A stretch of 64,000 nt of DNA, from the NCBI RefSeq assembly GCF_964204645.1, contig NC_134029.1, forward strand, positions 23,578,450 to 23,642,449, given 5' to 3'. Source of the DNA: Tubulanus polymorphus (lineage: Eukaryota; Nemertea; Palaeonemertea; Tubulaniformes; Tubulanidae). Both the position numbers and the translations under genes were made by a program. The notes under the pieces are model-generated. The model did no database searches. It was not told the DNA's origin and saw only the letters and a program-made list of their open reading frames with translations. Below are positions 11,601-14,600 of this stretch, in pieces. Positions within the stretch are counted from its first letter, which is position 1; each line of letters opens with the position of its first letter.

Positions 11601-14600
11601 TGACCGATTCGTGGCTTCCGTCATCGTCGAACATCCAGGCTCATTGTCTACAAGACTCGTTGAAAACCGAACAGCGCGTTCATCTGAACGTGAAATTAAA
11701 TGACGAAAACGAATGCGAAGTTACGATGGAACCGGTTTCAAACGGCAAAATAGCGGTCGAAACTAACGATTGCGAAATGTTACAAGTCGATCGATCTGGT
11801 GATTCTGGAAACTGTAGATTCAGCGTTCCGACGACACCGGCCGCTAAAACAGTCGTTTCATATACAGCTATAACACCGATTATAAATCAGAACGATTCCG
11901 GATATAAAAGTACGTCAACTCCGATAGTTGATAAAAGTAGTTCGTCAGCGGTCAATAGTAAAACTCAATTATCGGTTACTTTAGTCGAGGAATTCGATAC
12001 TTCGTTCAACCCTCTGATTTCGCCGAACGAAGCGACTCGAATCGACGAAACGAATGATACGCGAGAGAATAGTTTAATCGGAGTTTGTGACAGTTTTCAA
12101 ACAGCGAGCGGTTGGGCCGTCGGGTATTCAGACGAATCGATGTGTCAAGCTGTTAAACTATTCGACGATATTTACGCCGATAAAAGTGAACTGTCGTTAA
12201 ACTGCGAAGAGTTTGAACGAGAATGTGATTTCGATGCTCCGTCGTTCGGTTGCACTCAGAAACGTAAACGCGTAGATTCAAACGATTCAGGTGAACAATC
12301 GCTGGTGGTCGGTGAGTCGCGTATCGGTGAACGCTTGACAAAACTTCAAACTGATGAAAAGGAGAATATGAATGCAGAATTTCCAGTCGATGTTGTATTA
12401 GAAGAATCGATGAAACCTCGAAAGTTATTTCCAGATGAAAATAAATCATCTGAAATTAGAAATTCTGATCAGTCGGTTCATAATGTACGTAAGAATGCAA
12501 CATCAGTAGTACATTTTGCAGGATTCTCAACTGCTGGCGGTAAAACTATGACTATTTCTGAACAATCTTTGAAAAAAGCTAGAAGTTTGTTTACTGAAGA
12601 AGACAAACCAACTGAAAGTGTGACTCCAAAACAGTTTGGGGGATTCTCAACTGCTGGAGGCAAAACTGTGACTATTTCTGGAGAATCTTTGAAAAAAGCT
12701 AGAAGTTTGTTTACTGAAGAAGACAAACCAACTGAAAGTGTGACTCCAAAACAGTTTGGGGGATTCTCAACTGCTGGAGGCAAAACTGTGACTATTTCTG
12801 GAGAATCTTTGAAAAAAGCTAGAAGTTTGTTTACTGAAGAAGACAAACCAACTGAAAGTGTGACTCCAAAACAGTTTGGAGGATTCTCAACTGCTGGAGG
12901 CAAAACTGTGACTATTTCTGGAGAATCTTTGAAAAAAGCTAGAAGTTTGTTTACTGAAGAAGACAAACCAACTGAAAGTGTGACTCCAAAACAGTTTGGA
13001 GGATTCTCAACTGCTGGAGGCAAAACTGTGACTATTTCTGGAGAATCTTTGAAAAAAGCTAGAAGTTTGTTTACTGAAGAAGACAAACCAACTGAAAGTG
13101 TGACTCCAAAACAATTTGGGGGATTCTCAACTGCTGGAGGCAAAATTGTGACTATTTCTGGAGAATCTTTGAAAAAAGCTAGAAGTTTGTTTACTGAAGA
13201 AGACAAACCAACTGAAAGTGTGACTCCAAAACAGTTTGGAGGATTCTCAACTGCTGGAGGCAAAACTGTGACTATTTCTGGAGAATCTTTGAAAAAAGCT
13301 AGAAGTTTGTTTACTGAAGAAGACAAACCAACTGAAAGTGTGACTCCAAAACAGTTTGGAGGATTCTCAACTGCTGGAGGCAAAACTGTGACTATTTCTG
13401 GAGAATCTTTGAAAAAAGCTAGAAGTTTGTTTACTGAAGAAGACAAACCAACTGAAAGTGTGACTCCAAAACAATTTGGGGGATTCTCAACTGCTGGAGG
13501 CAAAATTGTGACTATTTCTGGAGAATCTTTGAAAAAAGCTAGAAGTTTGTTTACTGAAGAAGACAAACCAACTGAAAGTGTGACTCCAAAACAGTTTGGA
13601 GGATTCTCAACTGCTGGAGGCAAAACTGTGACTATTTCTGGAGAATCTTTGAAAAAAGCTAGAAGTTTGTTTACTGAAGAAGACAAACCAACTGAAAGTG
13701 TGACTCCAAAACAGTTTGGAGGATTCTCAACTGCTGGAGGCAAAACTGTGACTATTTCTGAGCAATCTTTGAAAAAAGCTAGAAGTTTGTTTACTGAAGA
13801 AGACAAACCAACTGACAGTATGACTCCAAAACAGTTTGGAGGATTCTCAACTGCTGGAGGCAAAACTGTAACTATTTCTGGAGAATCTTTGAAAAAAGCC
13901 AGAAGTTTGTTTACTGAAGAAGACAAACCAACTGAAAGTGTGACTCCAAAACAGTTTGGAGGATTCTCAACTGCTGGAGGCAAAACTGTGACTATTTCTG
14001 AGCAATCTTTGAAAAAAGCTAGAAGTTTGTTTACTGAAGAAGACAAACCAACTGACAGTATGACTCCAAAACAGTTTGGAGGATTCTCAACTGCTGGAGG
14101 CAAAACTGTAACTATTTCTGGAGAATCTTTGAAAAAAGCCAGAAGTTTGTTTACTGAAGAAGACAAACCAACTGAAAGTGTGACTCCAAAACAGTTTGGA
14201 GGATTTTCAACTGCTGGAGGCAAAACTGTGAATATTTCTGAACAATCTTTGAAAAAAGCTAGAAGTTTGTTTACTGAAGAAGACAAACCAACTGAAAGTG
14301 TGACTCCAAAACAATTTGGGGGATTCTCAACTGCTGGAGGCAAAACTGTGACTATTTCTGGAGAATCTTTGAAAAAAGCTAGATCTTTATTCACAGAGGA
14401 ACAATCACCAGAAGTTCAGACCATTCAAGATCTATGTGATAAGACTGATTCTCAGGGATTTGATGGACTATGTTCCGATAAGGCTGAGATCTGTAAAATC
14501 CCCAGTCAGAATCCTCGTTTACACAAATCAGATGATAAAGAAGAAGATGTAATGAGTAAAGAAATAAGAGAGAGTTCTCTTGCGCTATTGGCTGATGGTG

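What the first reader, a model, noticed from the sequence alone, without database searches (positions are those of the whole stretch)
12523..14402. BRCA2 with a homogenised array of 16 BRC repeats
Sixteen near-identical 40-residue BRC units in exact tandem, each with FSTA and LFTEE, plus three diverged units, give at least 19 potential RAD51 sites. Known BRCA2 proteins mostly have one to fifteen BRC units that are diverged and separated by variable linkers (established knowledge, from memory). Here both unit and linker are fixed at 40 residues, which would place RAD51 protomers at regular spacing. If functional, this could nucleate long RAD51 filaments. It could also simply be repeat expansion by unequal exchange.
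Basis: partly seen in the sequence, partly recalled or inferred. Interest (0 to 1): 0.88.

Follow-up and report, generated by a model that had tools for sequence, protein, structure and literature searches.

The report
BRCA2 with sixteen near-identical BRC repeats

Summary
In one exon (10293-14675, + strand) 16 BRC units lie in exact 120-nt register from 12524. Fifteen are complete 40-residue units (8 nucleotide types, 5 protein types, 96.8% mean identity); the sixteenth keeps the core but not the linker. Of three diverged upstream units, two have FxxG instead of FxxA and one scores below Pfam's cut-off, so '19 RAD51 sites' is generous. The gene is a real BRCA2: helical, OB1, Tower, OB2 and OB3 follow.

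The array grew by tandem unequal exchange: blocks of two and three units duplicated, interior homogenised, edges diverged. The un-homogenised half of unit 16 keeps RSLFTEE through six nucleotide changes, a sign of past purifying selection.

The kind is known: T. brucei BRCA2 has a tandem array of 44-residue repeats, 14 of 15 predicted identical, and Drosophila repeat number varies within species. The filament-ruler idea is weak, because FxxA occupies the RAD51 protomer interface. Most likely it is a multivalent RAD51 carrier with unstable copy number. Species, relatives, reads and transcripts were not available.

The parts
12524..14401 (+). Homogenised BRC array: 16 cores of 26 residues (FSTAGGK...LFTEE), 15 of them followed by a fixed 14-residue linker
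14324..14443 (+). Unit 16: first 60 nt identical to unit 2, then abrupt divergence (33 of 60 nt differ); RSLFTEE kept through six nucleotide differences, linker different
12524..12643 (+). Unit 1: five differences from unit 2, all in the first 40 nt (5' edge)
12787..13400 (+). 614-bp stretch repeated exactly 360 bp downstream (13147-13760): three-unit block duplication
13724..14203 (+). Two-unit block duplication: units 11-12 identical to units 13-14
10529..10612 (+). Diverged BRC unit a (FTSG ... HLFADIDE)
10814..10891 (+). Diverged BRC unit b (FTTG ... VLLDEA)
12095..12172 (+). Diverged BRC unit c (FQTA ... KLFDDI), below Pfam cut-off
10293..14675 (+). Large BRCA2 exon that holds all the BRC units found
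7960..10048 (+). Upstream exon, in frame with the array exon; no Pfam match for its ORF
14759..17933 (+). Six further exons in frame (14759-14840, 14932-15352, 15674-15892, 16170-16363, 17437-17565, 17862-17933); the last four encode the BRCA2 helical domain
26083..30528 (+). BRCA2 OB1, in two ORFs (26083-26388 and 30331-30528); exon ends not set
30755..31021 (+). ORF with BRCA2 Tower
31784..32086 (+). ORF with BRCA2 OB2
32376..33291 (+). BRCA2 OB3, in three ORFs (32376-32489, 32413-32688 and 33091-33291); only the last is above Pfam's cut-off

Best explanation
This is the RAD51-binding exon of an otherwise ordinary, probably animal, BRCA2 gene. One BRC unit with its 14-residue linker was multiplied to 16 by unequal exchange (or replication slippage) in whole 120-nt steps, including duplications of blocks of two and three units, and exchange keeps the interior uniform. 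Each unit should bind one RAD51 through FxxA and the LFxE site, so the array works as a multivalent carrier that holds up to about 16 RAD51 molecules and hands them to ssDNA held by the downstream DNA-binding domain. Shown: sequence, register, block duplications, edge divergence, domain content, an open spliced frame up to the helical domain, the conserved RSLFTEE remnant in unit 16. Inferred: RAD51 binding, carrier role, allelic variation in copy number.
For: Period 120, no indels. 614-bp exact repeat at offset 360, longer than in any of 300 permutations of the order of units 2-15 (maximum 550); units 11-12 equal 13-14. Edges diverge: unit 1's five changes are in its first 40 nt; unit 16 is identical to unit 2 for 60 nt and then breaks (33 of the last 60 nt differ). 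The 3' half of unit 16 keeps RSLFTEE through six nucleotide differences in 21 nt; six random substitutions do that with P about 3e-5. pN/pS among 15 units is 0.28 over all 105 pairs. The positions matching human BRC4 F1524, A1527, I1534, L1539, L1545, F1546 and E1548 hold the same residue in 16 of 16 units; V1542 is A throughout (unit strings; roles of I1534 to E1548 from PMC9162458 passages, A1527, F1524 recalled). Human BRC4 of 1n0w aligns without gaps, though at E only 0.012. DNA-binding domain present. Two other in-frame tandem arrays lie in ORFs of the same 64 kb, so tandem growth is not special to BRCA2 here. T. brucei shows the same anatomy, including a degenerate last repeat, and cutting the array lowers recombination efficiency.
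Against: No relative, second allele, transcript or read was available. The linker, with no known contact, is no more variable than the core (pN/pS 0.17 against 0.37), so uniformity within the array reflects homogenisation and is not in itself evidence of selection. That no contact residue varies among the five variable core codons is expected by chance in 13% of cases (hand arithmetic, C(18,5)/C(26,5)). The 3e-5 is from a simple null without mutation bias, and the serine change (AGT to TCT) takes two steps that are not silent one by one. Single-BRC mice are viable and fertile (PMC12803100 passages) and one-repeat BRCA2 supports VSG switching in T. brucei, so 16 units need not matter.
Confidence: 0.77

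Rival explanations
1. The copy number is an assembly error: the array is real but the true number of units differs.
For: Units are near-identical, with a 614-bp exact internal repeat. In T. brucei TREU927 the genome predicted 15 repeats and PCR mapping found 11 per allele (PMC2408642).
Against: Diagnostic variants mark blocks and both edges, and the array (1.9 kb) is short enough for one long read; a short-read assembly would more likely have collapsed a 614-bp exact repeat (inference). Sequencing technology unknown.
Confidence: 0.25
2. Adaptive expansion: selection for stronger homologous recombination raised BRC number.
For: In T. brucei reduced repeat number impairs recombination and RAD51 localisation (PMC2408642 abstract); moss BRC repeats act together to bind RAD51 more strongly (PMC12412785 passages).
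Against: In D. yakuba and D. santomea Tajima's D gave no sign of atypical selection and short alleles persist (PMC2882388). Two unrelated in-frame arrays in this window suggest a general tendency to tandem growth. No population data here.
Confidence: 0.3
3. Filament ruler: the fixed 40-residue spacing lays RAD51 protomers in register and nucleates long filaments.
For: 16 protomers at 3 nt each would cover 48 nt, 2.5 turns at 6.4 protomers per turn (parameters from PMC5100573 passages; arithmetic mine). The same paper says sub-stoichiometric BRC repeats promote nucleation and stabilise RAD51 on ssDNA, and models the LFDE site as compatible with the filament.
Against: In that model the FxxA module sits at the protomer interface and clashes with the active filament, and BRC repeats at 1:1 or more prevent or undo assembly; BRC repeats disrupt filaments (PMC11436757). 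Fixed spacing follows from duplication and needs no function.
Confidence: 0.07
4. Non-functional array: a broken or unexpressed BRCA2, or an array removed by splicing.
For: No transcript seen; the start of the gene was not found and the OB exons were not joined.
Against: Eight exons with GT-AG bounds join in frame, 2529 codons without a stop; all DNA-binding subdomains present; conserved RSLFTEE remnant in unit 16.
Confidence: 0.03

Closest known systems
Trypanosoma brucei BRCA2 BRC array (PMC2408642)
   Same: Tandem, near-identical BRC units in fixed register, last repeat degenerate, apparent recent expansion; 5-12 repeats found by PCR in different strains and subspecies
   Different: There 44-residue units, predicted 15 with 14 identical, in a protist; trypanosome repeats lack a human-like LFDE (PMC9162458). 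Here 40-residue units with LFTE, three diverged units besides, and helical, OB1, Tower, OB2 and OB3 domains all recognised
Drosophila brca2 BRC repeats (D. yakuba 3 or 5, D. pseudoobscura 7, 9 or 11; PMC2882388)
   Same: Animal BRCA2 in which repeat number changes, with unequal crossing over and contraction proposed
   Different: In D. yakuba repeats 2 and 4 differ by 17% at protein level and the total is 3 or 5; no homogenised array of this length is described in the parts read (1 and 2 of 3)
Human BRCA2, eight BRC repeats (1n0w and other entries)
   Same: FxxA and LFxE contacts; DNA-binding domain (mammalian BRCA2 chains 1mje, 1miu, 1iyj matched; that they are mammalian is recalled)
   Different: Mammalian repeats are non-identical and joined by a non-conserved linker (PMC12803100)

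Membership tests
BRCA2 | At least one BRC repeat (PF00634) | tested here: met
   4e-146, 17 stretches; the three stretches with an array unit that were scanned alone gave 34.2, 36.8 and 37.3 bits against cut-off 20.3
BRCA2 | DNA-binding domain: helical, OB1, Tower, OB2, OB3 | tested here: met
   PF09169 in four ORFs, PF09103 in two, PF09121, PF21318 and PF09104, all above cut-off except two of the three OB3 ORFs; 1mje_A E 1.1e-13
BRCA2 | BRC array and DNA-binding domain in one spliced frame | tested here: met
   Open frame from 7960 to 17933 over eight exons, i.e. through the helical domain; OB1 to OB3 exons were not joined
BRCA2 | C-terminal filament-binding motif (TR2/PhePP) | tested here: inconclusive
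   F-R-A-P at 34190 in the last long ORF lacks the first P of FxPP; 34130-34240 matches no PDB chain at E up to 10
BRCA2 | Binds RAD51 | not testable with these tools
   Contact residues present; no assay
Homogenised BRC array, T. brucei type | Many near-identical BRC units in fixed tandem register | tested here: met
   15 units of 120 nt, mean identity 96.8%
Homogenised BRC array, T. brucei type | Absent or shorter in close relatives; copy number varies within species | not testable with these tools
   No relatives or second alleles held; the genome search not answered

The most novel reading that the evidence does not exclude
An animal lineage has replaced a set of graded BRC repeats by a homogeneous 16-valent RAD51 loader: the strong sites are now all alike, the units outside the array look weak (two FxxG, one poor core), and a whole nucleus of about 16 protomers (48 nt, 2.5 filament turns) can be delivered at once. 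Its copy number would vary between individuals, making it a natural test of how BRC number sets recombination capacity in an animal.
Probability: 0.15. Interest if true: 0.65.

Novelty: new member of a known kind. Interest (0 to 1): 0.42.

Why it matters
Why BRCA2 keeps several BRC repeats is called unresolved in a 2026 preprint (PMC12803100 passages). A gene with a uniform array and a full DNA-binding domain would let one vary valency alone, without changing the affinity of single repeats, and would show whether the T. brucei result holds in animals. If copy number is polymorphic it would be a coding minisatellite inside a central recombination mediator, itself made and changed by recombination.

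Tried and rejected
Rejected: a separate antisense gene in the array. The minus-strand ORF 12478-14394 (638 aa) follows from periodicity: if one 120-nt unit has no stop in that frame, a near-identical array has none. Rejected: the extra Pfam names on the array exon (PCB_OB, TIG and YQBQ above their whole-protein cut-offs, Cytochrom_C550 below). All four have 0 stretches that pass on their own, so I take them for sums over a repeat; TIG reached only E 0.06 and 0.08 on single units.

Failed first try: one search joined the exons with the donor of the array exon set one base late and found no open frame; one search has the corrected end (14675). GT-AG bounds were chosen as such, so the test there is the frame, not the splice signal.

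Led nowhere: relatives of the array in viral contigs (2 pattern matches, 0 confirmed) and genome contigs (13 pattern matches, 0 confirmed); these hold viruses and prokaryotes, so this says nothing about animal relatives. The window's own genome (genome search, where own) did not complete. Paper one search (8 listed of 9) gave nothing on point. Searches (15 listed of 10,453; 15 listed of 805) were badly framed and tell nothing. One search gave the T. brucei paper plus reviews and off-topic papers, search 50 the Drosophila paper alone, search 51 one review that I did not open. So 'no homogenised BRC array described in an animal' rests on searches of an open-licence library and is weak.

Papers: passages only of PMC2408642 (plus part 1 of 2 of its Discussion), PMC12803100, PMC11436757, PMC5100573, PMC9162458, PMC12412785, PMC4855620; parts 1 and 2 of 3 of PMC2882388. 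Others were seen only in listings.

Full report
Observation. Reading 11000-16500 and Tandem Repeats Finder show an uninterrupted array, 12511-14383, period 120, 96% matches, no indels. In the frame of the surrounding exon the first FSTA codon is at 12524. The commonest unit reads [26 protein letters not shown] + [14 protein letters not shown]. Of 16 units, 15 are complete; they fall into 8 nucleotide types and 5 protein types, with mean pairwise nucleotide identity 96.8% (minimum 93.3%). Pfam calls the stretch BRCA2 repeat with E 4e-146. This is far beyond chance.

The other units. Upstream, the same exon has three diverged units: a (10529-10612), b (10814-10891) and c (12095-12172). Pfam accepts a and b (22.5 and 37.4 bits, cut-off 20.3) but not c (11.5 bits). 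Units a and b carry FTSG and FTTG, so the alanine of FxxA is glycine; in tetrapeptides FHTG bound about sixfold weaker than FHTA (PMC4855620, passages). Unit c has FxxA but a poor core. A loose BRC pattern, written after seeing these units, finds these three and no others outside the array in the 2529-codon model.

The gene. Eight exons, 7960-17933, join in one open frame (a first try failed through a donor set one base late). The array lies in the second (10293-14675). The last four encode the BRCA2 helical domain (Pfam E 1.3e-7, 9.1e-10, 1.2e-17 and 7.6e-6 on their ORFs; the third also matches PDB 1mje, 1miu and 1iyj at 1.1e-13 to 2.6e-13). Further down the same strand are OB1 (3.4e-20 and 6.7e-7), Tower (2e-7), OB2 (2.3e-15) and OB3 (4.6e-8, with two pieces below cut-off). 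I did not find the start of the gene and did not join the OB exons. The organism is not identified; that it is an animal is inferred, from memory, from the HEPN_DZIP3 and NACHT domains of a neighbouring gene and the gene structure.

How the array arose. Units 11-12 equal 13-14 exactly, and 614 bp at 12787-13400 recur exactly 360 bp on. In 300 permutations of the order of units 2-15 the longest exact repeat never exceeded 550 bp (median 299). So blocks of two and three units were duplicated. The edges differ from the interior: the five changes of unit 1 lie in its first 40 nt, and unit 16 is identical to unit 2 for 60 nt and then breaks off, with 33 of the last 60 nt different. Growth by unequal exchange or slippage with homogenisation of the interior explains this. 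Two other in-frame arrays lie in ORFs of the window: 30 bp x 5.8 in a NACHT gene and 30 bp x 16.8 in a minus-strand ORF whose coding status is not tested. The tendency is therefore not peculiar to BRCA2.

Selection. Within the array pN/pS is 0.28 over 105 pairs (27.5 synonymous and 92.5 non-synonymous sites), 0.37 in the core and 0.17 in the linker. Because units copy one another, and the linker is no more variable than the core, this says little. The better evidence is the un-homogenised 3' half of unit 16: RSLFTEE is kept through six nucleotide differences in 21 nt, which six random substitutions would do with probability about 3e-5 (a simple null without mutation bias, and one of the codons, serine AGT to TCT, needs two steps that are not silent one by one). 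Straight after it 27 of 42 nt differ and the linker residues are different. So the second RAD51-contact half of the BRC was probably under purifying selection on the time scale that separates this remnant from the array. Across 16 units no variable residue is at a contact position, but with five variable core codons that is expected in 13% of cases (hand arithmetic).

How it probably works. The unit aligns without gaps to human BRC4 in the RAD51 complex 1n0w, at a modest E of 0.012 for so short a chain. Contact residues named in PMC9162458 (passages) include I1534, L1539, V1542, L1545, F1546 and E1548; the array has I, L, A, L, F and E. I infer one RAD51 per unit and a carrier role, with hand-over at the DNA-binding domain. 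The ruler idea has one main weakness: in a model built on the cryo-EM filament, FxxA mimics the RAD51-RAD51 contact and clashes with the active filament (PMC5100573, passages), and BRC repeats disrupt filaments that PhePP motifs stabilise (PMC11436757, passages). On the other side, one search reports that sub-stoichiometric BRC repeats promote nucleation, and its authors speculate that the LFDE site alone could hold a filament. The 14-residue linker is longer than the gap of around six residues between the two Leishmania repeats, where simultaneous binding of two RAD51 was thought to need a vacant C-terminus, so crowding should be less of a problem here (inference).

Comparison. T. brucei BRCA2 has an array of 132-bp units predicted at 15 with 14 identical; the last repeat is degenerate; PCR found 11 rather than 15 in the genome strain and 5-12 over all strains tested; reduced repeat number lowers recombination efficiency and RAD51 relocalisation, but not VSG switching (PMC2408642, passages). 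That paper says multiple BRC repeats elsewhere, T. congolense apart, are unevenly spread and degenerate; it gives 14 for T. vaginalis (part 1 of 2 of the Discussion) and 10 for Anopheles gambiae. Drosophila yakuba and santomea have 3 or 5 and D. pseudoobscura 7, 9 or 11, with unequal crossing over proposed for D. yakuba (PMC2882388, parts 1 and 2 of 3). Against importance of number: mice with one BRC are viable and fertile, though their fibroblasts show genomic instability (PMC12803100, passages).

Verdict. A real, unusually clean and long BRC array in an intact-looking, probably animal, BRCA2: new as an example, known as a kind. Its value depends on whether the copy number is true and variable.

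Noticed in passing
18651-23342, - strand: A gene with HEPN_DZIP3 (ORF 22398-23342, E 4.5e-29) and NACHT plus weak LRR matches below cut-off (ORF 18651-20933, E 2.6e-17), perhaps one NLR-like gene, lies antisense between the BRCA2 helical exon that ends at 17933 and the first OB1 ORF at 26083, so apparently inside a BRCA2 intron. A stretch near 25.6 kb looks like further BRCA2 from memory only.
   Followed up: partly
19710-19882: 30-bp repeat x 5.8 (98% matches), in frame in the NACHT ORF, giving [10 protein letters not shown] repeats.
   Followed up: partly
37773-39302, - strand: 510-codon open stretch with a 30-bp repeat x 16.8 (85%) giving MTPSQQQTSH repeats; family not searched.
   Followed up: no
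34130-34240: The last long BRCA2 ORF (33476-34642) has an F-R-A-P stretch after OB3 that resembles, from memory, the human TR2 region; no PDB match at E up to 10.
   Followed up: partly
11036: F-K-P-P, an FxPP-like motif, between diverged BRC units b and c.
   Followed up: no
15095-15250: Three F-I-[NS]-P-[IV]-K motifs in the second exon after the array exon, between the array and the helical domain; may be a set of short linear motifs.
   Followed up: no
28066-28450: Perfect TC dinucleotide run, 192.5 copies, between the two OB1 ORFs.
   Followed up: no
12524-14383: Third codon positions of the array are poorer in G+C than those of the exon upstream of it (0.21 against 0.34).
   Followed up: no
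36500-64000, + strand: Other + strand ORFs match RINGv (E 5e-16), UBA (3.7e-9) and ubiquitin (8.7e-7, ORF 45245-45694); only the last was located, the other two came from the tally over 78 ORFs from 17743 on, so their place is not known.
   Followed up: no
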